Shown here in pieces: positions 12,452-64,000 of a stretch of 64,000 nucleotides of DNA (the stretch's first letter is position 1; every line of letters starts with the position of its first letter). Position numbers and translations under genes: made by a program. Origin of the DNA: Heligmosomoides polygyrus polygyrus (taxonomy: Eukaryota > Nematoda > Chromadorea > Rhabditida > Heligmosomidae); contig OX377202.1 in assembly GCA_947396885.1 (NCBI GenBank), forward strand, positions 68,234,643 through 68,298,642. The letters run 5' to 3'. The notes beneath the pieces are model-generated. The model did no database searches and was not told the DNA's origin. It worked only from the letters and a program-made list of their open reading frames with translations.

Positions 12452-12513
12452 AACCGAGAGAAGACTGATGAGTCGATAGTTGTTGATATCCTCCTGCTGA
12501 CCTTTTTTGAAGA

Positions 12514-27057: not shown

Positions 27058-27495
27058 TGGGGGGCTGCGTTCGCGCGGCCCTGAAAAGTCTTCAAACGAA
27101 GCCGGTGAGTGAGCTCCAACTCAATCACACCCGCTCAACTCATTCGCCACACCATGCACTTAACACCTTACTTTCGCCTACATGGCGCAATCCATGACTG
27201 AGTTCGAGTGGTGTGGTATCGAGTCCACCGCGAGGGATTTTTGCCCTGCCGCTTCTCGATCGTGTTTCGCTGATGCCCTGTGCGCATCGAGCGTCCTCTC
27301 GGGGCGGGGTGGGGCTCATGTTCGTGGCCCTTTCCCCATGTGAGCACCTCCCAACCCTCTTCCTGGACTCTTCTACCCACCGCCGTCCCTCGCCCGCCAC
27401 ATTCTTCCGGACAAATCCGACCGCTAGCCCCAACAATCAACCCCGCTCCAGATACGGAGTGGGCCGCCAATCGCTGGCGAGCCCCAACCGCTCGT
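27058..27495 (+). repeat. Truncated first array unit: U1 3' end plus spacer
   Basis: The homology to the array begins at the G run before U1 stem-loop IV. Stem IV (27065-27072 with 27077-27084 around UUCG) is kept, but the Sm site and everything 5' of it are missing, so this U1 is a 3' fragment. Upstream is unrelated sequence with a short T run (27041-27047). This spacer differs from all later ones at 27146 (G for A), 27318 (A for G) and 27319 (T for G). Divergence of the outermost unit is typical of tandem arrays, because it pairs less often with its neighbours. Confidence 0.9.
27420..27495 (+). promoter_or_regulatory. Candidate snRNA promoter region upstream of U1 copy 1
   Basis: snRNA genes use a proximal sequence element roughly 40-70 bases upstream of the start. 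The interval here (GCTCCAGATACGGAGTGG and its left flank) is kept in every unit. It ends with a perfect dyad CGCCA-ATCGC-TGGCG at 27465-27479, which is -31 to -17. No TATA box is visible, which fits RNA polymerase II transcription of U1. Conservation is not proof of function, since the whole unit is homogenised. The placement rests on distance alone. Confidence 0.35.
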
Positions 27496-27656
27496 AAACT
27501 TACCTGGCTGGGAGGCTCTCGCGATCAAGAAGGCGGGACCTCCATGGCGAGGCCTGCGCATTGCACTTTGGCGCAGGCTGACCCGTGTGGCAGCTTCGAA
27601 TTGAGGTTAGCCAACAGCTAAATTTTTGTGTGGGGGGCTGCGTTCGCGCGGCCCTG
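27496..27656 (+). ncRNA. U1: U1 spliceosomal snRNA, copy 1 (reference copy)
   Basis: U1 snRNA pairs with the 5' splice site at the first step of spliceosome assembly in the nucleus. The 5' end carries ACUUACCUG (RNA positions 3-11), the reverse complement of the 5' splice-site consensus. Stem-loop I pairs 16-20 with 44-48 and 22-27 with 38-43, leaving the loop GAUCAAGAAG (28-37) bound by U1-70K in other species. Stem-loop II is a perfect 7-bp stem (58-64 with 76-82) with the U1A-type motif AUUGCAC at 65-71. Stem-loop III spans about 91-121. The Sm site AAAUUUUUGUG is at 125-135. Stem-loop IV is 8 bp (140-147 with 152-159) capped by UUCG. The 161-nt length is close to the usual 164. The start is set by the family's conserved 5' end and the 3' end by GGCCCUG after stem IV; either may be off by a base or two. 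Confidence 0.96.
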
Positions 27657-27680
27657 AAAAGTCTTCAAACGAAGCCGGTG
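27657..27680 (+). promoter_or_regulatory. Candidate 3'-end (3' box-like) region of U1 copy 1
   Basis: Directly after stem-loop IV come AAAA and then a small perfect dyad CTTC-AAAC-GAAG (27663-27674). snRNA genes end with a 3' box a few bases downstream that directs Integrator cleavage. This block has the right position but I cannot match it to a known consensus. Confidence 0.25.
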
Positions 27681-28068
27681 AGTGAGCTCCAACTCAATCA
27701 CACCCGCTCAACTCATTCACCACACCATGCACTTAACACCTTACTTTCGCCTACATGGCGCAATCCATGACTGAGTTCGAGTGGTGTGGTATCGAGTCCA
27801 CCGCGAGGGATTTTTGCCCTGCCGCTTCTCGATCGTGTTTCGCTGATGCCCTGTGCGCATCGAGCGTCCTCTCGGGGCGGGGTGGGGCTCGGGTTCGTGG
27901 CCCTTTCCCCATGTGAGCACCTCCCAACCCTCTTCCTGGACTCTTCTACCCACCGCCGTCCCTCGCCCGCCACATTCTTCCGGACAAATCCGACCGCTAG
28001 CCCCAACAATCAACCCCGCTCCAGATACGGAGTGGGCCGCCAATCGCTGGCGAGCCCCAACCGCTCGT
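27681..28068. other. Array spacer, first complete example
   Basis: GC-rich non-coding spacer. Short open frames on both strands recur every 573 bp, but they overlap one another and run into the U1 RNA, so they look like by-products. An oligo-T tract (GGATTTTTG, near 27808-27816) lies mid-spacer. A weak tRNA-like pair of boxes precedes it but has an extra base in the B box. No second RNA gene is supported. Confidence 0.7.
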
Positions 28069-28229
28069 AAACTTACCTGGCTGGGAGGCTCTCGCGATCA
28101 AGAAGGCGGGACCTCCATGGCGAGGCCTGCGCATTGCACTTTGGCGCAGGCTGACCCGTGTGGCAGCTTCGAATTGAGGTTAGCCAACAGCTAAATTTTT
28201 GTGTGGGGGGCTGCGTTCGCGCGGCCCTG
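28069..28229 (+). ncRNA. U1: U1 snRNA, copy 2
   Basis: No difference from copy 1 noticed. Its spacer lacks the three changes of the left-edge unit and represents the majority form. Confidence 0.95.
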
Positions 28230-28641
28230 AAAAGTCTTCAAACGAAGCCGGTGAGTGAGCTCCAACTCAATCACACCCGCTCAACTCATTCACCACACCA
28301 TGCACTTAACACCTTACTTTCGCCTACATGGCGCAATCCATGACTGAGTTCGAGTGGTGTGGTATCGAGTCCACCGCGAGGGATTTTTGCCCTGCCGCTT
28401 CTCGATCGTGTTTCGCTGATGCCCTGTGCGCATCGAGCGTCCTCTCGGGGCGGGGTGGGGCTCGGGTTCGTGGCCCTTTCCCCATGTGAGCACCTCCCAA
28501 CCCTCTTCCTGGACTCTTCTACCCACCGCCGTCCCTCGCCCGCCACATTCTTCCGGACAAATCCGACCGCTAGCCCCAACAATCAACCCCGCTCCAGATA
28601 CGGAGTGGGCCGCCAATCGCTGGCGAGCCCCAACCGCTCGT

Positions 28642-28802
28642 AAACTTACCTGGCTGGGAGGCTCTCGCGATCAAGAAGGCGGGACCTCCATGGCGAGGCC
28701 TGCGCATTGCACTTTGGCGCAGGCTGACCCGTGTGGCAGCTTCGAATTGAGGTTAGCCAACAGCTAAATTTTTGTGTGGGGGGCTGCGTTCGCGCGGCCC
28801 TG
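28642..28802 (+). ncRNA. U1: U1 snRNA, copy 3
   Basis: No difference from copy 1 noticed. Confidence 0.95.
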
Positions 28803-29214
28803 AAAAGTCTTCAAACGAAGCCGGTGAGTGAGCTCCAACTCAATCACACCCGCTCAACTCATTCACCACACCATGCACTTAACACCTTACTTTCGCCTAC
28901 ATGGCGCAATCCATGACTGAGTTCGAGTGGTGTGGTATCGAGTCCACCGCGAGGGATTTTTGCCCTGCCGCTTCTCGATCGTGTTTCGCTGATGCCCTGT
29001 GCGCATCGAGCGTCCTCTCGGGGCGGGGTGGGGCTCGGGTTCGTGGCCCTTTCCCCATGCGAGCACCTCCCAACCCTCTTCCTGGACTCTTCTACCCACC
29101 GCCGTCCCTCGCCCGCCACATTCTTCCGGACAAATCCGACCGCTAGCCCCAACAATCAACCCCGCTCCAGATACGGAGTGGGCCGCCAATCGCTGGCGAG
29201 CCCCAACCGCTCGT

Positions 29215-29375
29215 AAACTTACCTGGCTGGGAGGCTCTCGCGATCAAGAAGGCGGGACCTCCATGGCGAGGCCTGCGCATTGCACTTTGGCGCAGGCTGA
29301 CCCGTGTGGCAGCTTCGAATTGAGGTTAGCCAACAGCTAAATTTTTGTGTGGGGGGCTGCGTTCGCGCGGCCCTG
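29215..29375 (+). ncRNA. U1: U1 snRNA, copy 4
   Basis: RNA as copy 1. The spacer upstream has a private T to C at 29060. Confidence 0.95.
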
Positions 29376-29787
29376 AAAAGTCTTCAAACGAAGCCGGTGA
29401 GTGAGCTCCAACTCAATCACACCCGCTCAACTCATTCACCACACCATGCACTTAACACCTTACTTTCGCCTACATGGCGCAATCCATGACTGAGTTCGAG
29501 TGGTGTGGTATCGAGTCCACCGCGAGGGATTTTTGCCCTGCCGCTTCTCGATCGTGTTTCGCTGATGCCCTGTGCGCATCGAGCGTCCTCTCGGGGCGGG
29601 GTGGGGCTCGGGTTCGTGGCCCTTTCCCCATGTGAGCACCTCCCAACCCTCTTCCTGGACTCTTCTACCCACCGCCGTCCCTCGCCCGCCACATTCTTCC
29701 GGACAAATCCGACCGCTAGCCCCAACAATCAACCCCGCTCCAGATACGGAGTGGGCCGCCAATCGCTGGCGAGCCCCAACCGCTCGT

Positions 29788-29948
29788 AAACTTACCTGGC
29801 TGGGAGGCTCTCGCGATCAAGAAGGCGGGACCTCCATGGCGAGGCCTGCGCATTGCACTTTGGCGCAGGCTGACCCGTGTGGCAGCTTCGAATTGAGGTT
29901 AGCCAACAGCTAAATTTTTGTGTGGGGGGCTGCGTTCGCGCGGCCCTG
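29788..29948 (+). ncRNA. U1: U1 snRNA, copy 5
   Basis: No difference from copy 1 noticed. Confidence 0.95.
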
Positions 29949-30360
29949 AAAAGTCTTCAAACGAAGCCGGTGAGTGAGCTCCAACTCAATCACACCCGCT
30001 CAACTCATTCACCACACCATGCACTTAACACCTTACTTTCGCCTACATGGCGCAATCCATGACTGAGTTCGAGTGGTGTGGTATCGAGTCCACCGCGAGG
30101 GATTTTTGCCCTGCCGCTTCTCGATCGTGTTTCGCTGATGCCCTGTGCGCATCGAGCGTCCTCTCGGGGCGGGGTGGGGCTCGGGTTCGTGGCCCTTTCC
30201 CCATGTGAGCACCTCCCAACCCTCTTCCTGGACTCTTCTACCCACCGCCGTCCCTCGCCCGCCACATTCTTCCGGACAAATCCGACCGCTAGCCCCAACA
30301 ATCAACCCCGCTCCAGATACGGAGTGGGCCGCCAATCGCTGGCGAGCCCCAACCGCTCGT

Positions 30361-30521
30361 AAACTTACCTGGCTGGGAGGCTCTCGCGATCAAGAAGGCG
30401 GGACCTCCATGGCGAGGCCTGCGCATTGCACTTTGGCGCAGGCTGACCCGTGTGGCAGCTTCGAATTGAGGTTAGCCAACAGCTAAATTTTTGTGTGGGG
30501 GGCTGCGTTCGCGCGGCCCTG
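30361..30521 (+). ncRNA. U1: U1 snRNA, copy 6
   Basis: No difference from copy 1 noticed. Confidence 0.95.
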
Positions 30522-30933
30522 AAAAGTCTTCAAACGAAGCCGGTGAGTGAGCTCCAACTCAATCACACCCGCTCAACTCATTCACCACACCATGCACTTA
30601 ACACCTTACTTTCGCCTACATGGCGCAATCCATGACTGAGTTCGAGTGGTGTGGTATCGAGTCCACCGCGAGGGATTTTTGCCCTGCCGCTTCTCGATCG
30701 TGTTTCGCTGATGCCCTGTGCGCATCGAGCGTCCTCTCGGGGCGGGGTGGGGCTCGGGTTCGTGGCCCTTTCCCCATGTGAGCACCTCCCAACCCTCTTC
30801 CTGGACTCTTCTACCCACCGCCGTCCCTCGCCCGCCACATTCTTCCGGACAAATCCGACCGCTAGCCCCAACAATCAACCCCGCTCCAGATACGGAGTGG
30901 GCCGCCAATCGCTGGCGAGCCCCAACCGCTCGT

Positions 30934-31094
30934 AAACTTACCTGGCTGGGAGGCTCTCGCGATCAAGAAGGCGGGACCTCCATGGCGAGGCCTGCGCATT
31001 GCACTTTGGCGCAGGCTGACCCGTGTGGCAGCTTCGAATTGAGGTTAGCCAACAGCTAAATTTTTGTGTGGGGGGCTGCGTTCGCGCGGCCCTG
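30934..31094 (+). ncRNA. U1: U1 snRNA, copy 7
   Basis: No difference from copy 1 noticed. Confidence 0.95.
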
Positions 31095-31506
31095 AAAAGT
31101 CTTCAAACGAAGCCGGTGAGTGAGCTCCAACTCAATCACACCCGCTCAACTCATTCACCACACCATGCACTTAACACCTTACTTTCGCCTACATGGCGCA
31201 ATCCATGACTGAGTTCGAGTGGTGTGGTATCGAGTCCACCGCGAGGGATTTTTGCCCTGCCGCTTCTCGATCGTGTTTCGCTGATGCCCTGTGCGCATCG
31301 AGCGTCCTCTCGGGGCGGGGTGGGGCTCGGGTTCGTGGCCCTTTCCCCATGTGAGCACCTCCCAACCCTCTTCCTGGACTCTTCTACCCACCGCCGTCCC
31401 TCGCCCGCCACATTCTTCCGGACAAATCCGACCGCTAGCCCCAACAATCAACCCCGCTCCAGATACGGAGTGGGCCGCCAATCGCTGGCGAGCCCCAACC
31501 GCTCGT

Positions 31507-31667
31507 AAACTTACCTGGCTGGGAGGCTCTCGCGATCAAGAAGGCGGGACCTCCATGGCGAGGCCTGCGCATTGCACTTTGGCGCAGGCTGACCCGTGTG
31601 GCAGCTTCGAATTGAGGTTAGCCAACAGCTAAATTTTTGTGTGGGGGGCTGCGTTCGCGCGGCCCTG
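31507..31667 (+). ncRNA. U1: U1 snRNA, copy 8
   Basis: No difference from copy 1 noticed. Confidence 0.95.
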
Positions 31668-32079
31668 AAAAGTCTTCAAACGAAGCCGGTGAGTGAGCTC
31701 CAACTCAATCACACCCGCTCAACTCATTCACCACACCATGCACTTAACACCTTACTTTCGCCTACATGGCGCAATCCATGACTGAGTTCGAGTGGTGTGG
31801 TATCGAGTCCACCGCGAGGGATTTTTGCCCTGCCGCTTCTCGATCGTGTTTCGCTGATGCCCTGTGCGCATCGAGCGTCCTCTCGGGGCGGGGTGGGGCT
31901 CGGGTTCGTGGCCCTTTCCCCATGTGAGCACCTCCCAACCCTCTTCCTGGACTCTTCTACCCACCGCCGTCCCTCGCCCGCCACATTCTTCCGGACAAAT
32001 CCGACCGCTAGCCCCAACAATCAACCCCGCTCCAGATACGGAGTGGGCCGCCAATCGCTGGCGAGCCCCAACCGCTCGT

Positions 32080-32240
32080 AAACTTACCTGGCTGGGAGGC
32101 TCTCGCGATCAAGAAGGCGGGACCTCCATGGCGAGGCCTGCGCATTGCACTTTGGCGCAGGCTGACCCGTGTGGCAGCTTCGAATTGAGGTTAGCCAACA
32201 GCTAAATTTTTGTGTGGGGGGCTGCGTTCGCGCGGCCCTG
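32080..32240 (+). ncRNA. U1: U1 snRNA, copy 9
   Basis: No difference from copy 1 noticed. Confidence 0.95.
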
Positions 32241-32652
32241 AAAAGTCTTCAAACGAAGCCGGTGAGTGAGCTCCAACTCAATCACACCCGCTCAACTCAT
32301 TCACCACACCATGCACTTAACACCTTACTTTCGCCTACATGGCGCAATCCATGACTGAGTTCGAGTGGTGTGGTATCGAGTCCACCGCGAGGGATTTTTG
32401 CCGTGCCGCTTCTCGATCGTGTTTCGCTGATGCCCTGTGCGCATCGAGCGTCCTCTCGGGGCGGGGTGGGGCTCGGGTTCGTGGCCCTTTCCCCATGTGA
32501 GCACCTCCCAACCCTCTTCCTGGACTCTTCTACCCACCGCCGTCCCTCGCCCGCCACATTCTTCCGGACAAATCCGACCGCTAGCCCCAACAATCAACCC
32601 CGCTCCAGATACGGAGTGGGCCGCCAATCGCTGGCGAGCCCCAACCGCTCGT

Positions 32653-32813
32653 AAACTTACCTGGCTGGGAGGCTCTCGCGATCAAGAAGGCGGGACCTCC
32701 ATGGCGAGGCCTGCGCATTGCACTTTGGCGCAGGCTGACCCGTGTGGCAGCTTCGAATTGAGGTTAGCCAACAGCTAAATTTTTGTGTGGGGGGCTGCGT
32801 TCGCGCGGCCCTG
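32653..32813 (+). ncRNA. U1: U1 snRNA, copy 10
   Basis: RNA as copy 1. The upstream spacer carries the G form of the C/G marker (32403). Confidence 0.95.
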
Positions 32814-33225
32814 AAAAGTCTTCAAACGAAGCCGGTGAGTGAGCTCCAACTCAATCACACCCGCTCAACTCATTCACCACACCATGCACTTAACACCTTA
32901 CTTTCGCCTACATGGCGCAATCCATGACTGAGTTCGAGTGGTGTGGTATCGAGTCCACCGCGAGGGATTTTTGCCCTGCCGCTTCTCGATCGTGTTTCGC
33001 TGATGCCCTGTGCGCATCGAGCGTCCTCTCGGGGCGGGGTGGGGCTCGGGTTCGTGGCCCTTTCCCCATGTGAGCACCTCCCAACCCTCTTCCTGGACTC
33101 TTCTACCCACCGCCGTCCCTCGCCCGCCACATTCTTCCGGACAAATCCGACCGCTAGCCCCAACAATCAACCCCGCTCCAGATACGGAGTGGGCCGCCAA
33201 TCGCTGGCGAGCCCCAACCGCTCGT

Positions 33226-33386
33226 AAACTTACCTGGCTGGGAGGCTCTCGCGATCAAGAAGGCGGGACCTCCATGGCGAGGCCTGCGCATTGCACTTTG
33301 GCGCAGGCTGACCCGTGTGGCAGCTTCGAATTGAGGTTAGCCAACAGCTAAATTTTTGTGTGGGGGGCTGCGTTCGCGCGGCCCTG
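33226..33386 (+). ncRNA. U1: U1 snRNA, copy 11
   Basis: No difference from copy 1 noticed. Confidence 0.95.
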
Positions 33387-33798
33387 AAAAGTCTTCAAAC
33401 GAAGCCGGTGAGTGAGCTCCAACTCAATCACACCCGCTCAACTCATTCACCACACCATGCACTTAACACCTTACTTTCGCCTACATGGCGCAATCCATGA
33501 CTGAGTTCGAGTGGTGTGGTATCGAGTCCACCGCGAGGGATTTTTGCCCTGCCGCTTCTCGATCGTGTTTCGCTGATGCCCTGTGCGCATCGAGCGTCCT
33601 CTCGGGGCGGGGTGGGGCTCGGGTTCGTGGCCCTTTCCCCATGTGAGCACCTCCCAACCCTCTTCCTGGACTCTTCTACCCACCGCCGTCCCTCGCCCGC
33701 CACATTCTTCCGGACAAATCCGACCGCTAGCCCCAACAATCAACCCCGCTCCAGATACGGAGTGGGCCGCCAATCGCTGGCGAGCCCCAACCGCTCGT

Positions 33799-33959
33799 AA
33801 ACTTACCTGGCTGGGAGGCTCTCGCGATCAAGAAGGCGGGACCTCCATGGCGAGGCCTGCGCATTGCACTTTGGCGCAGGCTGACCCGTGTGGCAGCTTC
33901 GAATTGAGGTTAGCCAACAGCTAAATTTTTGTGTGGGGGGCTGCGTTCGCGCGGCCCTG
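33799..33959 (+). ncRNA. U1: U1 snRNA, copy 12
   Basis: No difference from copy 1 noticed. Confidence 0.95.
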
Positions 33960-34371
33960 AAAAGTCTTCAAACGAAGCCGGTGAGTGAGCTCCAACTCAA
34001 TCACACCCGCTCAACTCATTCACCACACCATGCACTTAACACCTTACTTTCGCCTACATGGCGCAATCCATGACTGAGTTCGAGTGGTGTGGTATCGAGT
34101 CCACCGCGAGGGATTTTTGCCGTGCCGCTTCTCGATCGTGTTTCGCTGATGCCCTGTGCGCATCGAGCGTCCTCTCGGGGCGGGGTGGGGCTCGGGTTCG
34201 TGGCCCTTTCCCCATGTGAGCACCTCCCAACCCTCTTCCTGGACTCTTCTACCCACCGCCGTCCCTCGCCCGCCACATTCTTCCGGACAAATCCGACCGC
34301 TAGCCCCAACAATCAACCCCGCTCCAGATACGGAGTGGGCCGCCAATCGCTGGCGAGCCCCAACCGCTCGT

Positions 34372-34532
34372 AAACTTACCTGGCTGGGAGGCTCTCGCGA
34401 TCAAGAAGGCGGGACCTCCATGGCGAGGCCTGCGCATTGCACTTTGGCGCAGGCTGACCCGTGTGGCAGCTTCGAATTGAGGTTAGCCAACAGCTAAATT
34501 TTTGTGTGGGGGGCTGCGTTCGCGCGGCCCTG
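34372..34532 (+). ncRNA. U1: U1 snRNA, copy 13
   Basis: RNA as copy 1. Spacer marker G at 34122. Confidence 0.95.
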
Positions 34533-34944
34533 AAAAGTCTTCAAACGAAGCCGGTGAGTGAGCTCCAACTCAATCACACCCGCTCAACTCATTCACCACA
34601 CCATGCACTTAACACCTTACTTTCGCCTACATGGCGCAATCCATGACTGAGTTCGAGTGGTGTGGTATCGAGTCCACCGCGAGGGATTTTTGCCCTGCCG
34701 CTTCTCGATCGTGTTTCGCTGATGCCCTGTGCGCATCGAGCGTCCTCTCGGGGCGGGGTGGGGCTCGGGTTCGTGGCCCTTTCCCCATGTGAGCACCTCC
34801 CAACCCTCTTCCTGGACTCTTCTACCCACCGCCGTCCCTCGCCCGCCACATTCTTCCGGACAAATCCGACCGCTAGCCCCAACAATCAACCCCGCTCCAG
34901 ATACGGAGTGGGCCGCCAATCGCTGGCGAGCCCCAACCGCTCGT

Positions 34945-35105
34945 AAACTTACCTGGCTGGGAGGCTCTCGCGATCAAGAAGGCGGGACCTCCATGGCGAG
35001 GCCTGCGCATTGCACTTTGGCGCAGGCTGACCCGTGTGGCAGCTTCGAATTGAGGTTAGCCAACAGCTAAATTTTTGTGTGGGGGGCTGCGTTCGCGCGG
35101 CCCTG
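34945..35105 (+). ncRNA. U1: U1 snRNA, copy 14
   Basis: No difference from copy 1 noticed. Confidence 0.95.
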
Positions 35106-35517
35106 AAAAGTCTTCAAACGAAGCCGGTGAGTGAGCTCCAACTCAATCACACCCGCTCAACTCATTCACCACACCATGCACTTAACACCTTACTTTCGCC
35201 TACATGGCGCAATCCATGACTGAGTTCGAGTGGTGTGGTATCGAGTCCACCGCGAGGGATTTTTGCCGTGCCGCTTCTCGATCGTGTTTCGCTGATGCCC
35301 TGTGCGCATCGAGCGTCCTCTCGGGGCGGGGTGGGGCTCGGGTTCGTGGCCCTTTCCCCATGTGAGCACCTCCCAACCCTCTTCCTGGACTCTTCTACCC
35401 ACCGCCGTCCCTCGCCCGCCACATTCTTCCGGACAAATCCGACCGCTAGCCCCAACAATCAACCCCGCTCCAGATACGGAGTGGGCCGCCAATCGCTGGC
35501 GAGCCCCAACCGCTCGT

Positions 35518-35678
35518 AAACTTACCTGGCTGGGAGGCTCTCGCGATCAAGAAGGCGGGACCTCCATGGCGAGGCCTGCGCATTGCACTTTGGCGCAGGC
35601 TGACCCGTGTGGCAGCTTCGAATTGAGGTTAGCCAACAGCTAAATTTTTGTGTGGGGGGCTGCGTTCGCGCGGCCCTG
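35518..35678 (+). ncRNA. U1: U1 snRNA, copy 15
   Basis: RNA as copy 1. Spacer marker G at 35268. Confidence 0.95.
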
Positions 35679-36090
35679 AAAAGTCTTCAAACGAAGCCGG
35701 TGAGTGAGCTCCAACTCAATCACACCCGCTCAACTCATTCACCACACCATGCACTTAACACCTTACTTTCGCCTACATGGCGCAATCCATGACTGAGTTC
35801 GAGTGGTGTGGTATCGAGTCCACCGCGAGGGATTTTTGCCGTGCCGCTTCTCGATCGTGTTTCGCTGATGCCCTGTGCGCATCGAGCGTCCTCTCGGGGC
35901 GGGGTGGGGCTCGGGTTCGTGGCCCTTTCCCCATGTGAGCACCTCCCAACCCTCTTCCTGGACTCTTCTACCCACCGCCGTCCCTCGCCCGCCACATTCT
36001 TCCGGACAAATCCGACCGCTAGCCCCAACAATCAACCCCGCTCCAGATACGGAGTGGGCCGCCAATCGCTGGCGAGCCCCAACCGCTCGT

Positions 36091-36251
36091 AAACTTACCT
36101 GGCTGGGAGGCTCTCGCGATCAAGAAGGCGGGACCTCCATGGCGAGGCCTGCGCATTGCACTTTGGCGCAGGCTGACCCGTGTGGCAGCTTCGAATTGAG
36201 GTTAGCCAACAGCTAAATTTTTGTGTGGGGGGCTGCGTTCGCGCGGCCCTG
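36091..36251 (+). ncRNA. U1: U1 snRNA, copy 16
   Basis: RNA as copy 1. Spacer marker G at 35841. Confidence 0.95.
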
Positions 36252-36663
36252 AAAAGTCTTCAAACGAAGCCGGTGAGTGAGCTCCAACTCAATCACACCC
36301 GCTCAACTCATTCACCACACCATGCACTTAACACCTTACTTTCGCCTACATGGCGCAATCCATGACTGAGTTCGAGTGGTGTGGTATCGAGTCCACCGCG
36401 AGGGATTTTTGCCCTGCCGCTTCTCGATCGTGTTTCGCTGATGCCCTGTGCGCATCGAGCGTCCTCTCGGGGCGGGGTGGGGCTCGGGTTCGTGGCCCTT
36501 TCCCCATGTGAGCACCTCCCAACCCTCTTCCTGGACTCTTCTACCCACCGCCGTCCCTCGCCCGCCACATTCTTCCGGACAAATCCGACCGCTAGCCCCA
36601 ACAATCAACCCCGCTCCAGATACGGAGTGGGCCGCCAATCGCTGGCGAGCCCCAACCGCTCGT

Positions 36664-37236: not shown

Positions 37237-37397
37237 AAACTTACCTGGCTGGGAGGCTCTCGCGATCAAGAAGGCGGGACCTCCATGGCGAGGCCTGCGC
37301 ATTGCACGTTGGCGCAGGCTGACCCATGTGGCAGCTTCGAATTGAGGTTAGCCAACAGCTAAATTTTTTTGTGGGGGGCTGCGTTCGCGCGGCCCTG
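37237..37397 (+). ncRNA. U1: U1 snRNA, copy 18 (three-base variant)
   Basis: Three linked changes: U72G in loop II just after AUUGCAC (37308), G90A in the linker before stem III (37326), and G133U (37369), which turns the Sm-site end UUUUUGUG into UUUUUUUG. Stems I, II and IV and the 5' end are intact, so the RNA could still fold. Whether it assembles Sm proteins normally is open. Confidence 0.94.
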
Positions 37398-37809
37398 AAA
37401 AGTCTTCAAACGAAGCCGGTGAGTGAGCTCCAACTCAATCACACCCGCTCAACTCATTCACCACACCATGCACTTAACACCTTACTTTCGCCTACATGGC
37501 GCAATCCATGACTGAGTTCGAGTGGTGTGGTATCGAGTCCACCGCGAGGGATTTTTGCCCTGCCGCTTCTCGATCGTGTTTCGCTGATGCCCTGTGCGCA
37601 TCGAGCGTCCTCTCGGGGCGGGGTGGGGCTCGGGTTCGTGGCCCTTTCCCCATGTGAGCACCTCCCAACCCTCTTCCTGGACTCTTCTACCCACCGCCGT
37701 CCCTCGCCCGCCACATTCTTCCGGACAAATCCGACCGCTAGCCCCAACAATCAACCCCGCTCCAGATACGGAGTGGGCCGCCAATCGCTGGCGAGCCCCA
37801 ACCGCTCGT

Positions 37810-46404: not shown

Positions 46405-46565
46405 AAACTTACCTGGCTGGGAGGCTCTCGCGATCAAGAAGGCGGGACCTCCATGGCGAGGCCTGCGCATTGCACGTTGGCGCAGGCTGACCCATGTGGC
46501 AGCTTCGAATTGAGGTTAGCCAACAGCTAAATTTTTTTGTGGGGGGCTGCGTTCGCGCGGCCCTG
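46405..46565 (+). ncRNA. U1: U1 snRNA, copy 34 (three-base variant)
   Basis: Same linked haplotype as copy 18: U72G (46476), G90A (46494), G133U in the Sm site (46537). Confidence 0.94.
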
Positions 46566-48696: not shown

Positions 48697-48857
48697 AAAC
48701 TTACCTGGCTGGGAGGCTCTCGCGATCAAGAAGGCGGGACCTCCATGGCGAGGCCTGCGCATTGCACTTTGGCGCAGGCTGACCCGTGTGGCAGCTTCGA
48801 ATTGAGGTTAGCCAACAGCTAAATTTTTGTGTGGGGGGCTGCCTTCGCGCGGCCCTG
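48697..48857 (+). ncRNA. U1: U1 snRNA, copy 38 (stem-IV variant)
   Basis: G147C at 48843, as in copy 29. Confidence 0.94.
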
Positions 48858-54585: not shown

Positions 54586-54997
54586 AAAAGTCTTCAAACG
54601 AAGCCGGTGAGTGAGCTCCAACTCAATCACACCCGCTCAACTCATTCACCACACCATGCACTTAACACCTTACTTTCGCCTACATGGCGCAATCCATGAC
54701 TGAGTTCGAGTGGTGTGGTATCGAGTCCACCGCGAGGGATTTTTGCCGTGCCGCTTCTCGATCGTGTTTCGCTGATGCCCTGTGCGCATCGAGCGTCCTC
54801 TCGGGGCGGGGTGGGGCTCGGGTTCGTGGCCCTTTCCCCATGTGAGCACCTCCCAACCCTCTTCCTGGACTCTTCTACCCACCGCCGTCCCTCGCCCGCC
54901 ACATTCTTCCGGACAAATCCGACCGCTAGCCCCAACAATCAACCCCGCTCCAGATACGGAGTGGGCCGCCAATCGCTGGCGAGCCCCAACCGCTCGT

Positions 54998-55158
54998 AAA
55001 CTTACCTGGCTGGGAGGCTCTCGCGATCAAGAAGGCGGGACCTCCATGGCGAGGCCTGCGCATTGCACTTTGGCGCAGGCTGACCCGTGTGGCAGCTTCG
55101 AATTGAGGTTAGCCAACAGCTAAATTTTTGTGTGGGGGGCTGCCTTCGCGCGGCCCTG
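54998..55158 (+). ncRNA. U1: U1 snRNA, copy 49 (stem-IV variant)
   Basis: G147C at 55144. Unlike copies 29 and 38, its upstream spacer also carries the G marker (54748). Confidence 0.94.
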
Positions 55159-55570
55159 AAAAGTCTTCAAACGAAGCCGGTGAGTGAGCTCCAACTCAAT
55201 CACACCCGCTCAACTCATTCACCACACCATGCACTTAACACCTTACTTTCGCCTACATGGCGCAATCCATGACTGAGTTCGAGTGGTGTGGTATCGAGTC
55301 CACCGCGAGGGATTTTTGCCCTGCCGCTTCTCGATCGTGTTTCGCTGATGCCCTGTGCGCATCGAGCGTCCTCTCGGGGCGGGGTGGGGCTCGGGTTCGT
55401 GGCCCTTTCCCCATGTGAGCACCTCCCAACCCTCTTCCTGGACTCTTCTACCCACCGCCGTCCCTCGCCCGCCACATTCTTCCGGACAAATCCGACCGCT
55501 AGCCCCAACAATCAACCCCGCTCCAGATACGGAGTGGGCCGCCAATCGCTGGCGAGCCCCAACCGCTCGT

Positions 55571-55731
55571 AAACTTACCTGGCTGGGAGGCTCTCGCGAT
55601 CAAGAAGGCGGGACCTCCATGGCGAGGCCTGCGCATTGCACTTTGGCGCAGGCTGACCCGTGTGGCAGCTTCGAATTGAGGTTAGCCAACAGCTAAATTT
55701 TTGTGTGGGGGGCTGCGTTCGCGCGGCCCTG
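55571..55731 (+). ncRNA. U1: U1 snRNA, copy 50
   Basis: No difference from copy 1 noticed. Confidence 0.95.
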
Positions 55732-56143
55732 AAAAGTCTTCAAACGAAGCCGGTGAGTGAGCTCCAACTCAATCACACCCGCTCAACTCATTCACCACAC
55801 CATGCACTTAACACCTTACTTTCGCCTACATGGCGCAATCCATGACTGAGTTCGAGTGGTGTGGTATCGAGTCCACCGCGAGGGATTTTTGCCCTGCCGC
55901 TTCTCGATCGTGTTTCGCTGATGCCCTGTGCGCATCGAGCGTCCTCTCGGGGCGGGGTGGGGCTCGGGTTCGTGGCCCTTTCCCCATGTGAGCACCTCCC
56001 AACCCTCTTCCTGGACTCTTCTACCCACCGCCGTCCCTCGCCCGCCACATTCTTCCGGACAAATCCGACCGCTAGCCCCAACAATCAACCCCGCTCCAGA
56101 TACGGAGTGGGCCGCCAATCGCTGGCGAGCCCCAACCGCTCGT

Positions 56144-56304
56144 AAACTTACCTGGCTGGGAGGCTCTCGCGATCAAGAAGGCGGGACCTCCATGGCGAGG
56201 CCTGCGCATTGCACTTTGGCGCAGGCTGACCCGTGTGGCAGCTTCGAATTGAGGTTAGCCAACAGCTAAATTTTTGTGTGGGGGGCTGCGTTCGCGCGGC
56301 CCTG
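56144..56304 (+). ncRNA. U1: U1 snRNA, copy 51
   Basis: No difference from copy 1 noticed. Confidence 0.95.
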
Positions 56305-56716
56305 AAAAGTCTTCAAACGAAGCCGGTGAGTGAGCTCCAACTCAATCACACCCGCTCAACTCATTCACCACACCATGCACTTAACACCTTACTTTCGCCT
56401 ACATGGCGCAATCCATGACTGAGTTCGAGTGGTGTGGTATCGAGTCCACCGCGAGGGATTTTTGCCCTGCCGCTTCTCGATCGTGTTTCGCTGATGCCCT
56501 GTGCGCATCGAGCGTCCTCTCGGGGCGGGGTGGGGCTCGGGTTCGTGGCCCTTTCCCCATGTGAGCACCTCCCAACCCTCTTCCTGGACTCTTCTACCCA
56601 CCGCCGTCCCTCGCCCGCCACATTCTTCCGGACAAATCCGACCGCTAGCCCCAACAATCAACCCCGCTCCAGATACGGAGTGGGCCGCCAATCGCTGGCG
56701 AGCCCCAACCGCTCGT

Positions 56717-56877
56717 AAACTTACCTGGCTGGGAGGCTCTCGCGATCAAGAAGGCGGGACCTCCATGGCGAGGCCTGCGCATTGCACTTTGGCGCAGGCT
56801 GACCCGTGTGGCAGCTTCGAATTGAGGTTAGCCAACAGCTAAATTTTTGTGTGGGGGGCTGCGTTCGCGCGGCCCTG
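56717..56877 (+). ncRNA. U1: U1 snRNA, copy 52
   Basis: No difference from copy 1 noticed. Confidence 0.95.
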
Positions 56878-57289
56878 AAAAGTCTTCAAACGAAGCCGGT
56901 GAGTGAGCTCCAACTCAATCACACCCGCTCAACTCATTCACCACACCATGCACTTAACACCTTACTTTCGCCTACATGGCGCAATCCATGACTGAGTTCG
57001 AGTGGTGTGGTATCGAGTCCACCGCGAGGGATTTTTGCCGTGCCGCTTCTCGATCGTGTTTCGCTGATGCCCTGTGCGCATCGAGCGTCCTCTCGGGGCG
57101 GGGTGGGGCTCGGGTTCGTGGCCCTTTCCCCATGTGAGCACCTCCCAACCCTCTTCCTGGACTCTTCTACCCACCGCCGTCCCTCGCCCGCCACATTCTT
57201 CCGGACAAATCCGACCGCTAGCCCCAACAATCAACCCCGCTCCAGATACGGAGTGGGCCGCCAATCGCTGGCGAGCCCCAACCGCTCGT

Positions 57290-57450
57290 AAACTTACCTG
57301 GCTGGGAGGCTCTCGCGATCAAGAAGGCGGGACCTCCATGGCGAGGCCTGCGCATTGCACTTTGGCGCAGGCTGACCCGTGTGGCAGCTTCGAATTGAGG
57401 TTAGCCAACAGCTAAATTTTTGTGTGGGGGGCTGCGTTCGCGCGGCCCTG
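57290..57450 (+). ncRNA. U1: U1 snRNA, copy 53
   Basis: RNA as copy 1. Spacer marker G at 57040. Confidence 0.95.
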
Positions 57451-57862
57451 AAAAGTCTTCAAACGAAGCCGGTGAGTGAGCTCCAACTCAATCACACCCG
57501 CTCAACTCATTCACCACACCATGCACTTAACACCTTACTTTCGCCTACATGGCGCAATCCATGACTGAGTTCGAGTGGTGTGGTATCGAGTCCACCGCGA
57601 GGGATTTTTGCCCTGCCGCTTCTCGATCGTGTTTCGCTGATGCCCTGTGCGCATCGAGCGTCCTCTCGGGGCGGGGTGGGGCTCGGGTTCGTGGCCCTTT
57701 CCCCATGTGAGCACCTCCCAACCCTCTTCCTGGACTCTTCTACCCACCGCCGTCCCTCGCCCGCCACATTCTTCCGGACAAATCCGACCGCTAGCCCCAA
57801 CAATCAACCCCGCTCCAGATACGGAGTGGGCCGCCAATCGCTGGCGAGCCCCAACCGCTCGT

Positions 57863-58023
57863 AAACTTACCTGGCTGGGAGGCTCTCGCGATCAAGAAGG
57901 CGGGACCTCCATGGCGAGGCCTGCGCATTGCACTTTGGCGCAGGCTGACCCGTGTGGCAGCTTCGAATTGAGGTTAGCCAACAGCTAAATTTTTGTGTGG
58001 GGGGCTGCGTTCGCGCGGCCCTG
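57863..58023 (+). ncRNA. U1: U1 snRNA, copy 54
   Basis: No difference from copy 1 noticed. Confidence 0.95.
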
Positions 58024-58435
58024 AAAAGTCTTCAAACGAAGCCGGTGAGTGAGCTCCAACTCAATCACACCCGCTCAACTCATTCACCACACCATGCACT
58101 TAACACCTTACTTTCGCCTACATGGCGCAATCCATGACTGAGTTCGAGTGGTGTGGTATCGAGTCCACCGCGAGGGATTTTTGCCGTGCCGCTTCTCGAT
58201 CGTGTTTCGCTGATGCCCTGTGCGCATCGAGCGTCCTCTCGGGGCGGGGTGGGGCTCGGGTTCGTGGCCCTTTCCCCATGTGAGCACCTCCCAACCCTCT
58301 TCCTGGACTCTTCTACCCACCGCCGTCCCTCGCCCGCCACATTCTTCCGGACAAATCCGACCGCTAGCCCCAACAATCAACCCCGCTCCAGATACGGAGT
58401 GGGCCGCCAATCGCTGGCGAGCCCCAACCGCTCGT

Positions 58436-58596
58436 AAACTTACCTGGCTGGGAGGCTCTCGCGATCAAGAAGGCGGGACCTCCATGGCGAGGCCTGCGCA
58501 TTGCACTTTGGCGCAGGCTGACCCGTGTGGCAGCTTCGAATTGAGGTTAGCCAACAGCTAAATTTTTGTGTGGGGGGCTGCGTTCGCGCGGCCCTG
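58436..58596 (+). ncRNA. U1: U1 snRNA, copy 55
   Basis: RNA as copy 1. Spacer marker G at 58186. Confidence 0.95.
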
Positions 58597-59008
58597 AAAA
58601 GTCTTCAAACGAAGCCGGTGAGTGAGCTCCAACTCAATCACACCCGCTCAACTCATTCACCACACCATGCACTTAACACCTTACTTTCGCCTACATGGCG
58701 CAATCCATGACTGAGTTCGAGTGGTGTGGTATCGAGTCCACCGCGAGGGATTTTTGCCCTGCCGCTTCTCGATCGTGTTTCGCTGATGCCCTGTGCGCAT
58801 CGAGCGTCCTCTCGGGGCGGGGTGGGGCTCGGGTTCGTGGCCCTTTCCCCATGTGAGCACCTCCCAACCCTCTTCCTGGACTCTTCTACCCACCGCCGTC
58901 CCTCGCCCGCCACATTCTTCCGGACAAATCCGACCGCTAGCCCCAACAATCAACCCCGCTCCAGATACGGAGTGGGCCGCCAATCGCTGGCGAGCCCCAA
59001 CCGCTCGT

Positions 59009-59169
59009 AAACTTACCTGGCTGGGAGGCTCTCGCGATCAAGAAGGCGGGACCTCCATGGCGAGGCCTGCGCATTGCACTTTGGCGCAGGCTGACCCGTG
59101 TGGCAGCTTCGAATTGAGGTTAGCCAACAGCTAAATTTTTGTGTGGGGGGCTGCGTTCGCGCGGCCCTG
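59009..59169 (+). ncRNA. U1: U1 snRNA, copy 56
   Basis: No difference from copy 1 noticed. Confidence 0.95.
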
Positions 59170-59581
59170 AAAAGTCTTCAAACGAAGCCGGTGAGTGAGC
59201 TCCAACTCAATCACACCCGCTCAACTCATTCACCACACCATGCACTTAACACCTTACTTTCGCCTACATGGCGCAATCCATGACTGAGTTCGAGTGGTGT
59301 GGTATCGAGTCCACCGCGAGGGATTTTTGCCGTGCCGCTTCTCGATCGTGTTTCGCTGATGCCCTGTGCGCATCGAGCGTCCTCTCGGGGCGGGGTGGGG
59401 CTCGGGTTCGTGGCCCTTTCCCCATGTGAGCACCTCCCAACCCTCTTCCTGGACTCTTCTACCCACCGCCGTCCCTCGCCCGCCACATTCTTCCGGACAA
59501 ATCCGACCGCTAGCCCCAACAATCAACCCCGCTCCAGATACGGAGTGGGCCGCCAATCGCTGGCGAGCCCCAACCGCTCGT

Positions 59582-59742
59582 AAACTTACCTGGCTGGGAG
59601 GCTCTCGCGATCAAGAAGGCGGGACCTCCATGGCGAGGCCTGCGCATTGCACTTTGGCGCAGGCTGACCCGTGTGGCAGCTTCGAATTGAGGTTAGCCAA
59701 CAGCTAAATTTTTGTGTGGGGGGCTGCGTTCGCGCGGCCCTG
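59582..59742 (+). ncRNA. U1: U1 snRNA, copy 57
   Basis: RNA as copy 1. Spacer marker G at 59332. Confidence 0.95.
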
Positions 59743-60154
59743 AAAAGTCTTCAAACGAAGCCGGTGAGTGAGCTCCAACTCAATCACACCCGCTCAACTC
59801 ATTCACCACACCATGCACTTAACACCTTACTTTCGCCTACATGGCGCAATCCATGACTGAGTTCGAGTGGTGTGGTATCGAGTCCACCGCGAGGGATTTT
59901 TGCCGTGCCGCTTCTCGATCGTGTTTCGCTGATGCCCTGTGCGCATCGAGCGTCCTCTCGGGGCGGGGTGGGGCTCGGGTTCGTGGCCCTTTCCCCATGT
60001 GAGCACCTCCCAACCCTCTTCCTGGACTCTTCTACCCACCGCCGTCCCTCGCCCGCCACATTCTTCCGGACAAATCCGACCGCTAGCCCCAACAATCAAC
60101 CCCGCTCCAGATACGGAGTGGGCCGCCAATCGCTGGCGAGCCCCAACCGCTCGT

Positions 60155-60315
60155 AAACTTACCTGGCTGGGAGGCTCTCGCGATCAAGAAGGCGGGACCT
60201 CCATGGCGAGGCCTGCGCATTGCACTTTGGCGCAGGCTGACCCGTGTGGCAGCTTCGAATTGAGGTTAGCCAACAGCTAAATTTTTGTGTGGGGGGCTGC
60301 GTTCGCGCGGCCCTG
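60155..60315 (+). ncRNA. U1: U1 snRNA, copy 58
   Basis: RNA as copy 1. Spacer marker G at 59905. Confidence 0.95.
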
Positions 60316-60727
60316 AAAAGTCTTCAAACGAAGCCGGTGAGTGAGCTCCAACTCAATCACACCCGCTCAACTCATTCACCACACCATGCACTTAACACCT
60401 TACTTTCGCCTACATGGCGCAATCCATGACTGAGTTCGAGTGGTGTGGTATCGAGTCCACCGCGAGGGATTTTTGCCGTGCCGCTTCTCGATCGTGTTTC
60501 GCTGATGCCCTGTGCGCATCGAGCGTCCTCTCGGGGCGGGGTGGGGCTCGGGTTCGTGGCCCTTTCCCCATGTGAGCACCTCCCAACCCTCTTCCTGGAC
60601 TCTTCTACCCACCGCCGTCCCTCGCCCGCCACATTCTTCCGGACAAATCCGACCGCTAGCCCCAACAATCAACCCCGCTCCAGATACGGAGTGGGCCGCC
60701 AATCGCTGGCGAGCCCCAACCGCTCGT

Positions 60728-60888
60728 AAACTTACCTGGCTGGGAGGCTCTCGCGATCAAGAAGGCGGGACCTCCATGGCGAGGCCTGCGCATTGCACTT
60801 TGGCGCAGGCTGACCCGTGTGGCAGCTTCGAATTGAGGTTAGCCAACAGCTAAATTTTTGTGTGGGGGGCTGCGTTCGCGCGGCCCTG
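60728..60888 (+). ncRNA. U1: U1 snRNA, copy 59
   Basis: RNA as copy 1. Spacer marker G at 60478. Confidence 0.95.
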
Positions 60889-61300
60889 AAAAGTCTTCAA
60901 ACGAAGCCGGTGAGTGAGCTCCAACTCAATCACACCCGCTCAACTCATTCACCACACCATGCACTTAACACCTTACTTTCGCCTACATGGCGCAATCCAT
61001 GACTGAGTTCGAGTGGTGTGGTATCGAGTCCACCGCGAGGGATTTTTGCCGTGCCGCTTCTCGATCGTGTTTCGCTGATGCCCTGTGCGCATCGAGCGTC
61101 CTCTCGGGGCGGGGTGGGGCTCGGGTTCGTGGCCCTTTCCCCATGTGAGCACCTCCCAACCCTCTTCCTGGACTCTTCTACCCACCGCCGTCCCTCGCCC
61201 GCCACATTCTTCCGAACAAATCCGACCGCTAGCCCCAACAATCAACCCCGCTCCAGATACGGAGTGGGCCGCCAATCGCTGGCGAGCCCCAACCGCTCGT

Positions 61301-61461
61301 AAACTTACCTGGCTGGGAGGCTCTCGCGATCAAGAAGGCGGGACCTCCATGGCGAGGCCTGCGCATTGCACTTTGGCGCAGGCTGACCCGTGTGGCAGCT
61401 TCGAATTGAGGTTAGCCAACAGCTAAATTTTTGTGTGGGGGGCTGCGTTCGCGCGGCCCTG
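61301..61461 (+). ncRNA. U1: U1 snRNA, copy 60
   Basis: RNA as copy 1. Spacer marker G at 61051 and a private G to A at 61215 (-86). Confidence 0.95.
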
Positions 61462-61873
61462 AAAAGTCTTCAAACGAAGCCGGTGAGTGAGCTCCAACTC
61501 AATCACACCCGCTCAACTCATTCACCACACCATGCACTTAACACCTTACTTTCGCCTACATGGCGCAATCCATGACTGAGTTCGAGTGGTGTGGTATCGA
61601 GTCCACCGCGAGGGATTTTTGCCCTGCCGCTTCTCGATCGTGTTTCGCTGATGCCCTGTGCGCATCGAGCGTCCTCTCGGGGCGGGGTGGGGCTCGGGTT
61701 CGTGGCCCTTTCCCCATGTGAGCACCTCCCAACCCTCTTCCTGGACTCTTCTACCCACCGCCGTCCCTCGCCCGCCACATTCTTCCGGACAAATCCGACC
61801 GCTAGCCCCAACAATCAACCCCGCTCCAGATACGGAGTGGGCCGCCAATCGCTGGCGAGCCCCAACCGCTCGT

Positions 61874-62034
61874 AAACTTACCTGGCTGGGAGGCTCTCGC
61901 GATCAAGAAGGCGGGACCTCCATGGCGAGGCCTGCGCATTGCACTTTGGCGCAGGCTGACCCGTGTGGCAGCTTCGAATTGAGGTTAGCCAACAGCTAAA
62001 TTTTTGTGTGGGGGGCTGCGTTCGCGCGGCCCTG
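61874..62034 (+). ncRNA. U1: U1 snRNA, copy 61
   Basis: No difference from copy 1 noticed. Confidence 0.95.
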
Positions 62035-62446
62035 AAAAGTCTTCAAACGAAGCCGGTGAGTGAGCTCCAACTCAATCACACCCGCTCAACTCATTCACCA
62101 CACCATGCACTTAACACCTTACTTTCGCCTACATGGCGCAATCCATGACTGAGTTCGAGTGGTGTGGTATCGAGTCCACCGCGAGGGATTTTTGCCCTGC
62201 CGCTTCTCGATCGTGTTTCGCTGATGCCCTGTGCGCATCGAGCGTCCTCTCGGGGCGGGGTGGGGCTCGGGTTCGTGGCCCTTTCCCCATGTGAGCACCT
62301 CCCAACCCTCTTCCTGGACTCTTCTACCCACCGCCGTCCCTCGCCCGCCACATTCTTCCGGACAAATCCGACCGCTAGCCCCAACAATCAACCCCGCTCC
62401 AGATACGGAGTGGGCCGCCAATCGCTGGCGAGCCCCAACCGCTCGT

Positions 62447-62607
62447 AAACTTACCTGGCTGGGAGGCTCTCGCGATCAAGAAGGCGGGACCTCCATGGCG
62501 AGGCCTGCGCATTGCACGTTGGCGCAGGCTGACCCGTGTGGCAGCTTCGAATTGAGGTTAGCCAACAGCTAAATTTTTGTGTGGGGGGCTGCGTTCGCGC
62601 GGCCCTG
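62447..62607 (+). ncRNA. U1: U1 snRNA, copy 62 (loop-II variant)
   Basis: U72G only (62518), without G90A or G133U. Confidence 0.94.
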
Positions 62608-63019
62608 AAAAGTCTTCAAACGAAGCCGGTGAGTGAGCTCCAACTCAATCACACCCGCTCAACTCATTCACCACACCATGCACTTAACACCTTACTTTCG
62701 CCTACATGGCGCAATCCATGACTGAGTTCGAGTGGTGTGGTATCGAGTCCACCGCGAGGGATTTTTGCCCTGCCGCTTCTCGATCGTGTTTCGCTGATGC
62801 CCTGTGCGCATCGAGCGTCCTCTCGGGGCGGGGTGGGGCTCGGGTTCGTGGCCCTTTCCCCATGTGAGCACCTCCCAACCCTCTTCCTGGACTCTTCTAC
62901 CCACCGCCGTCCCTCGCCCGCCACATTCTTCCGGACAAATCCGACCGCTAGCCCCAACAATCAACCCCGCTCCAGATACGGAGTGGGCCGCCAATCGCTG
63001 GCGAGCCCCAACCGCTCGT

Positions 63020-63180
63020 AAACTTACCTGGCTGGGAGGCTCTCGCGATCAAGAAGGCGGGACCTCCATGGCGAGGCCTGCGCATTGCACGTTGGCGCAG
63101 GCTGACCCGTGTGGCAGCTTCGAATTGAGGTTAGCCAACAGCTAAATTTTTGTGTGGGGGGCTGCGTTCGCGCGGCCCTG
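63020..63180 (+). ncRNA. U1: U1 snRNA, copy 63 (loop-II variant)
   Basis: U72G only (63091). Confidence 0.94.
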
Positions 63181-63592
63181 AAAAGTCTTCAAACGAAGCC
63201 GGTGAGTGAGCTCCAACTCAATCACACCCGCTCAACTCATTCACCACACCATGCACTTAACACCTTACTTTCGCCTACATGGCGCAATCCATGACTGAGT
63301 TCGAGTGGTGTGGTATCGAGTCCACCGCGAGGGATTTTTGCCCTGCCGCTTCTCGATCGTGTTTCGCTGATGCCCTGTGCGCATCGAGCGTCCTCTCGGG
63401 GCGGGGTGGGGCTCGGGTTCGTGGCCCTTTCCCCATGTGAGCACCTCCCAACCCTCTTCCTGGACTCTTCTACCCACCGCCGTCCCTCGCCCGCCACATT
63501 CTTCCGGACAAATCCGACCGCTAGCCCCAACAATCAACCCCGCTCCAGATACGGAGTGGGCCGCCAATCGCTGGCGAGCCCCAACCGCTCGT

Positions 63593-63753
63593 AAACTTAC
63601 CTGGCTGGGAGGCTCTCGCGATCAAGAAGGCGGGACCTCCATGGCGAGGCCTGCGCATTGCACGTTGGCGCAGGCTGACCCATGTGGCAGCTTCGAATTG
63701 AGGTTAGCCAACAGCTAAATTTTTTTGTGGGGGGCTGCGTTCGCGCGGCCCTG
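63593..63753 (+). ncRNA. U1: U1 snRNA, copy 64 (three-base variant)
   Basis: U72G (63664), G90A (63682) and G133U in the Sm site (63725), as in copies 18 and 34. The spacer after it has the G marker (63916) and is cut by the window edge before the next U1. Confidence 0.94.
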
Positions 63754-64000
63754 AAAAGTCTTCAAACGAAGCCGGTGAGTGAGCTCCAACTCAATCACAC
63801 CCGCTCAACTCATTCACCACACCATGCACTTAACACCTTACTTTCGCCTACATGGCGCAATCCATGACTGAGTTCGAGTGGTGTGGTATCGAGTCCACCG
63901 CGAGGGATTTTTGCCGTGCCGCTTCTCGATCGTGTTTCGCTGATGCCCTGTGCGCATCGAGCGTCCTCTCGGGGCGGGGTGGGGCTCGGGTTCGTGGCCC

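What the first reader, a model, noticed from the sequence alone, without database searches (positions are those of the whole stretch)
27058..64000. rDNA-like tandem array of at least 64 U1 snRNA genes in a nematode-like genome
Each 573-bp unit contains a complete, well-folding U1 snRNA (5' splice-site-pairing end, U1-70K loop, U1A motif, Sm site, UUCG stem IV). The array is unbroken over 36.9 kb and open at the right. In Caenorhabditis, as I recall, U1 genes are dispersed, and 5S/SL1 RNA is what occurs in tandem. Large U1 arrays are known from sea urchin and frog. A hookworm-type array with a single U1 per short unit is not one I know of. It may serve very high U1 dosage, for example for rapid embryonic transcription or for competition with trans-splicing; that role is inference.
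Basis: partly seen in the sequence, partly recalled or inferred. Interest (0 to 1): 0.9.

Follow-up and report, generated by a model that had tools for sequence, protein, structure and literature searches.

The report
Hundred-copy U1 snRNA gene array
A roundworm genome (likely that of the rodent gut parasite Heligmosomoides polygyrus) carries 101 nearly identical genes for U1, the RNA that recognises where splicing starts, packed head to tail in one unbroken 58-kb stretch, each with its own predicted promoter, so the stretch likely works like ribosomal DNA as a bulk source of one standard RNA.

Summary
Confirmed and extended. All 64 units in the window hit Rfam U1 at 120.8-127.8 bits (cut-off 69.5). 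In the window's own assembly the array is closed on both sides by gap-free ordinary DNA: 58,220 bp, 101 complete U1 genes, one orientation, unit 573 bp in 98 of 100 intervals. U1 is identical in 91 of 101 copies. The spacer is as uniform as the gene, which points to homogenisation by recombination, not to selection on the gene alone. A promoter matrix trained only on the genome's U2 and U5 genes finds one strong site in the U1 unit, at -56 and without a TATA box, identical in 100 of 101 units. Each unit is thus a predicted self-contained Pol II snRNA gene. U5 (309-bp units) and 5S/SL1 (about 1,117 bp) are arrayed too; U2 is loosely clustered; U4 and U6 are mostly dispersed. A late search overturned my inference that this is the only U1 locus: about 228 further U1-like 5' ends exist, 99 of them seen in ~575-bp arrays on another chromosome that I could not read. 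Tandem U1 arrays are known elsewhere; I found none reported in a nematode. Expression, true copy number and any dosage role are untested.

The parts
27058..64000 (+). The part of the array that lies in the window: a 438-bp partial unit, 63 full units and the start of the 64th; the array goes on for 21,277 bp beyond the window (to C13:68319919)
27058..27495 (+). Left-edge partial unit, beginning inside U1 (unit position 136); 3 mismatches to the consensus (unit positions 224, 396, 397)
27440..27463 (+). Predicted PSE (SNAPc-type promoter element) of the first complete U1, at -56 to -33; the same 24-mer lies before 100 of 101 U1 genes
   Evidence: matrix trained on U2 and U5 only, 16.8 bits, next site in the unit 8.5; whole genome with up to 3 mismatches: 101 forward, 0 reverse, 0 control
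27496..27657 (+). First complete U1 snRNA gene (162 nt); the further 63 of the window follow about every 573 bp, last start 63593
   Evidence: RF00003, 127.8 bits
27658..28068 (+). Spacer of the first full unit (411 bp), with the PSE of the next U1; no other RNA family found in two units up to E 5
37237..37398 (+). U1 with the minor three-change haplotype 72T>G, 90G>A, 133G>T (Sm-site U run 5 to 7); the same at 46405 and 63593
   Evidence: 122.8 bits
43540..43701 (+). U1 with 147G>C, which breaks a stem IV pair; also at 48697 and 54998, and once beyond the window
   Evidence: 120.8 bits
51563..51723 (+). U1 of 161 nt with a 1-nt deletion in the G run after the Sm site; its spacer also lacks 2 nt (unit 570 bp)

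Best explanation
This is a 58,220-bp head-to-tail array of 101 complete U1 snRNA genes, each with a predicted RNA polymerase II snRNA promoter, that likely serves as a bulk source of U1 snRNA and is likely kept uniform by unequal crossing-over and gene conversion. Shown by the sequence: U1 anatomy, spacing, orientation, closed ends, near-identity of gene and spacer alike, shared minor variants and repeated blocks. Predicted: SNAPc binding at the -56 element and Pol II transcription of single units. Inferred: most copies are active, the arrangement serves dosage plus uniformity, and the species is Heligmosomoides polygyrus. It is not the only U1-like locus of this genome, so how supply is shared among loci is open.
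For: 64 of 64 window units score 120.8-127.8 bits with the U1 model; 101 complete genes, 91 with the same 162 nt. All U1 classes keep the 5' end, loop II AUUGCAC and an Sm-like site. A matrix trained on 5 U2 and 2 U5 upstream regions, U1 left out, picks one site in the unit at -56 (16.8 bits; next 8.5); 0 of 53,952 left-flank positions reach it. It is identical in 100 of 101 units. ATA[AC]G stands at -44 to -46 in U1, the five U2, the two U5 and the SL1 locus compared. No TATA in the 60 nt upstream. Diversity 0.0018 in U1 and 0.0014 in spacer (98 full units); 324C>G clustered along the array (p 0.007); a 4,771-bp block repeated exactly. U5 and SL1/5S are arrayed in the same genome.
Against: No expression data. 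About 228 further U1-like 5' ends lie elsewhere, so this array may not be the main source. 11 of 2,000 shuffles of the spacer reach the promoter score. Variation is not lower in U1 than in spacer (4 of 162 against 6 of 411 sites, p 0.48), so selection on single copies is not shown. 10 of 101 U1 copies carry changes, some of which break a stem IV pair or lengthen the Sm site. The likely source reads were PCR-amplified with N50 9.6-11.1 kb, so 101 is an assembly figure.
Confidence: 0.8

Rival explanations
1. A silent U1-derived satellite: the array spread by recombination as repeat DNA, while working U1 comes from the other U1-like copies (C1 and elsewhere).
For: About 228 further U1-like 5' ends; spacer as uniform as gene; G+C 0.60 against 0.44 in the left flank marks it as distinct DNA.
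Against: 91 of 101 U1 copies intact and identical and the predicted promoter kept in 100 of 101. The C1 copies, not these, lack at least one motif of the strict U1 patterns.
Confidence: 0.08
2. An assembly artefact in size: a short real array, expanded or partly collapsed by the assembler.
For: Near-identical units, PCR-amplified HiFi reads in the likely source assembly (PMC10682056, passages).
Against: Longest exact repeat 4,771 bp against read N50 of 9.6-11.1 kb; both edges join ordinary DNA with no N in 93,958 bp; strict U1 matches are on C13 only, none on unplaced contigs.
Confidence: 0.07
3. One reading: extra U1 dosage to balance cis-splicing against SL trans-splicing, or to feed rapid early transcription.
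For: SL1 genes are arrayed in the same genome, so both kinds of splice donor are high-copy.
Against: No call tests expression or splicing. U5, which both kinds of splicing use (recalled), is arrayed too, so arraying is not special to the cis-splicing factor.
Confidence: 0.1

Closest known systems
Tandem U1 arrays of sea urchin and Xenopus (recalled; two titles on Xenopus U1 in development seen in a reference list)
   Same: One U1 gene per short unit, head to tail, many copies
   Different: Other phyla; units of about 1-2 kb as I recall; stage control known there, untested here
U1 repeat ClatSat13-761 of the tapeworm Caryophyllaeus laticeps (PMC12274263, passages)
   Same: Repetitive U1 DNA that maps to a single chromosomal locus in a parasitic worm
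   Different: Flatworm; repeat name gives 761, amplified piece 546 bp; array not assembled in the passages seen
5S/SL1 tandem repeats of C. elegans (PMC12803116, passages) and N. brasiliensis (PMC5765664, passages)
   Same: Nematode small-RNA genes in head-to-tail units; Pol II snRNA-type gene in each; this genome has them too
   Different: Two genes per unit, SL1 in place of U1
Drosophila U1 genes (PMC4291461, passages) and C. elegans snRNA loci (PMC6390993, passages)
   Same: Orthologous RNA; C. elegans is in the same phylum
   Different: Five U1 genes in Drosophila; C. [quoted passage not shown]
Primate RNU2 (U2) array, the classic of snRNA concerted evolution (titles in the reference list)
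   Same: Tandem snRNA genes homogenised in place
   Different: U2, much longer unit (recalled)

Membership tests
U1 spliceosomal snRNA (RF00003) | Scores above the curated cut-off over the full model | tested here: met
   64 of 64 window copies, 120.8-127.8 against 69.5 bits; copies beyond the window matched by pattern only
U1 spliceosomal snRNA (RF00003) | 5' end complementary to the 5' splice site, loop I for U1-70K, loop II AUUGCAC for U1A, Sm site, stem IV (roles recalled) | tested here: met
   5' end and loop I by pattern in 101 of 101; AUUGCAC and an A-U run-G Sm-like site in all five U1 classes; 3 copies have U7 in place of U5, 4 lose a stem IV pair
U1 spliceosomal snRNA (RF00003) | Transcribed, capped, in U1 snRNP | not testable with these tools
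   no RNA data
Nematode Pol II snRNA gene | SNAPc-type proximal element at a fixed distance, no TATA box | tested here: met
   the motif was derived here from U2 and U5, not compared with published logos
Nematode Pol II snRNA gene | 3' end formed by Integrator | not tested
   no 3' element was analysed
Homogenised tandem snRNA array | Head-to-tail units with constant spacing | tested here: met
   98 of 100 intervals 573 bp, one orientation
Homogenised tandem snRNA array | Spacer as uniform as the gene within the species | tested here: met
   0.0014 against 0.0018
Homogenised tandem snRNA array | Units differ between species (concerted evolution proper) | not testable with these tools
   no relative's genome is held
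Sole U1 locus of the genome (my own earlier view) | No U1-like gene elsewhere | tested here: not met
   about 228 further matches to the loose U1 5'-end pattern

The most novel reading that the evidence does not exclude
This nematode keeps about 330 U1 genes in at least two separate array systems of different U1 sequence class: the 101-copy array described here, and about 228 copies elsewhere, at least 99 of them in ~575-bp arrays on another chromosome with a different loop region, promoter and spacer. The two would be a dual U1 supply, for example early or germline against somatic, as in frog and sea urchin.
Probability: 0.3. Interest if true: 0.75.

Novelty: new member of a known kind. Interest (0 to 1): 0.5.

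Why it matters
Tandem snRNA arrays are a classic case of concerted evolution, but I found none described for U1 in a nematode (searches; listings, plus passages of the papers I opened). If true, the rDNA mode extends in one worm to U1, U5 and SL1/5S while U4 and U6 stay mostly dispersed, so array birth and homogenisation can be compared within one genome. The predicted promoter makes activity testable in a laboratory species, H. bakeri. If the C1 copies are a second U1 class, the worm would be a new system for asking why some animals keep two U1 sets.

Tried and rejected
Sole-locus claim: strict patterns found U1 only here and the Rfam genome search listed only array copies (42 of 9,556 first-look candidates scored). 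I held that view until the looser pattern refuted it. Of the three matches outside the array, one was listed and looks like chance; the two on the other strand were never listed, also not in the reverse-complement search; the control gives 3.

Comparison of upstream regions at exactly the same distance gave only weak windows for most loci (best 9-16 of 24 identical); the shared element shows once a 1-2 nt shift is allowed. Tandem Repeats Finder found nothing because its longest period is 500. No tRNA in the window. Pfam on 10 of the 30 ORFs of at least 100 aa in the left flank found one reverse transcriptase piece. No second RNA in two units up to E 5. Lower variation in U1 than in spacer, expected if selection kept each copy, was sought and not found (substitutions only, the two units with indels left out).
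Full report
Observation. Rfam finds 64 U1 genes in the window, all on the + strand, 120.8-127.8 bits against a cut-off of 69.5. Intervals are 573 bp in 61 of 63 cases. The array begins at 27058, inside a U1, after ordinary DNA. The window is C13:68234643-68298642 of a 656,174,362-bp assembly in 1,130 contigs. C13 has 111,625,236 bp, and the array runs to C13:68319919, where other DNA follows directly. In all: 58,220 bp, 101 complete U1 genes, 98 of 100 intervals of 573 bp, no N in the 93,958 bp that I joined.

The genome. SL1 genes lie in units of about 1,117 bp (42 matches of 50 scored, all on C13); the one unit I read has a 5S gene on the other strand. The SL1 matches stay below Rfam's cut-off (42.9-46.1 against 75 bits), but the letters equal the consensus over the first 25 nt. 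This is a nematode. Six large contigs recur in my searches (C1, C13, C27, C39, C52, C60); this and 656.2 Mb fit the H. polygyrus reference (656.6 Mb, six chromosomes, 1,278 scaffolds; PMC10682056, passages). The scaffold number differs from the 1,130 contigs here and no marker gene was compared, so the species is inferred. The related H. mixtum assembly is larger, 741.91 Mb (PMC13173282, passages).

The gene. 91 of 101 U1 sequences are identical. The other ten form four classes: 72G alone in 2 copies; 72G/90A/133T in 3, where the Sm-site U run grows from 5 to 7 and, on the Rfam structure, a G-U pair becomes A-U; 147C in 4, where a stem IV pair is lost; and a 1-nt deletion in the G run after the Sm site in 1. 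All keep AUUGCAC.

The promoter. I took the upstream regions of five U2 and two U5 loci, aligned them at ATA[AC]G, and built a weighted matrix without U1. In the U1 unit it has one strong site, 16.8 bits at -56; the next is 8.5. None of 53,952 positions of the left flank, both strands, reaches it (best 8.9); 11 of 2,000 shuffles of the G+C-rich spacer do. The SL1 unit, also left out of training, has its best site at -58 (6.5 bits; the next is negative). There is no TATA in the 60 nt upstream. That nematode snRNA genes share a SNAPc motif, and that a TATA box marks the Pol III ones, is from PMC6436959 (section 9). My motif was not compared with their logos.

Homogenisation. Mean pairwise diversity is 0.0018 in U1 and 0.0014 in the spacer over 98 full units; sites with substitutions are 4 of 162 against 6 of 411, p 0.48 (the two units with indels are left out). 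The uniformity is thus not explained by selection on the gene. Variant 324C>G occurs in 28 of 101 copies, 23 of them in the right half, and is clustered (p 0.007). A 4,771-bp block recurs exactly 5,157 bp, that is nine units, further on. Unequal crossing-over and conversion are the likely causes; recent amplification would look similar.

Other snRNA genes. U5: 46 of 47 scored matches in one head-to-tail array of mostly 309-bp steps on C60. U2: 44 matches of 46 scored, 39 over the cut-off, mostly in clusters on C52, C27 and C39, with about 9-20 kb between most neighbours on C52 and C39. U6: 48 of 48 scored, over many contigs. U4: 27 matches of 41 scored, 25 over the cut-off, dispersed or in small groups. 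These are lower bounds, as only the best candidates are scored.

The result against my reading. Strict patterns found U1 only in this array. The loose pattern ACTTACCTGGN{3,22}GATCA gives 153 + 187 matches, control 5 + 6. 101 are this array. Of the 100 places listed, 85 lie on C1:12410854-12459115 (-) and 14 on C1 from 12502445 (+), spaced 572-576 bp within each group, with the 30-nt span that this U1 has; one is a lone match of another span. So about 228 further U1-like 5' ends exist, 99 of them seen in array; 139 matches, chance ones included, are unplaced. The C1 copies lack at least one motif of each strict pattern. The spacer search raised 103 first-look candidates in all, of which 40 were scored, all in this array, which leaves no room for the C1 units; and none of them matches this PSE at up to 3 mismatches. 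I could not read them. They may be a second class of U1 genes, decayed copies or, less likely given span and period, a chance satellite.

Literature. Known: a U1 repeat at one locus in a tapeworm (PMC12274263, passages) and a microsatellite in U1 snRNA genes of Echinococcus (PMC12714974, passages); 297 intact U1 genes in zebrafish (PMC3706591, passages); five U1 genes in Drosophila (PMC4291461, passages); tandem 5S/SL in N. brasiliensis, with massive tandem tRNA repeats (PMC5765664, passages), and in C. elegans (PMC12803116, passages). Sea urchin and frog U1 arrays are recalled. I found no nematode U1 array in the searches, which cover open-licence papers only; most listed papers were not opened.

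Verdict. A real U1 array, complete in the assembly, a new member of the known kind of tandem snRNA arrays, in a phylum where I found none reported. Its working as a bulk, self-homogenising U1 source is likely; activity, exact number and role are untested.

Noticed in passing
G000:C1:12410854-12459115 (-) and from C1:12502445 (+): Second array system with U1-like 5' ends, at least 85 + 14 copies about every 575 bp in opposite orientations, not matched by the strict U1 patterns.
   Followed up: partly
G000:C60:79207403-79222956 (-), L068-L086: Head-to-tail U5 snRNA array, mostly 309-bp steps, 46 scored copies.
   Followed up: partly
G000:C13:83947888-83994797 and beyond; L087: 5S/SL1 array, units of about 1,117 bp, 5S and SL1 on opposite strands; on the same contig as the U1 array, about 15.6 Mb away.
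   Followed up: partly
G000:C52:9750364-9984024, C39:84.48-84.53 Mb, C27:92.34-92.88 Mb: Loose U2 clusters with long intervals, some with degraded U2 copies nearby.
   Followed up: no
window 12029-12535 (-): Reverse-transcriptase ORF piece (PF00078, E 1.4e-20) in the left flank.
   Followed up: no
L011:2290-2850: Right flank has what looks by eye like a foldback (inverted) repeat about 1 kb after the array end.
   Followed up: no
window 37237, 46405, 63593: Minor U1 haplotype of three linked changes that recurs along the array; a possible variant or decaying U1.
   Followed up: partly
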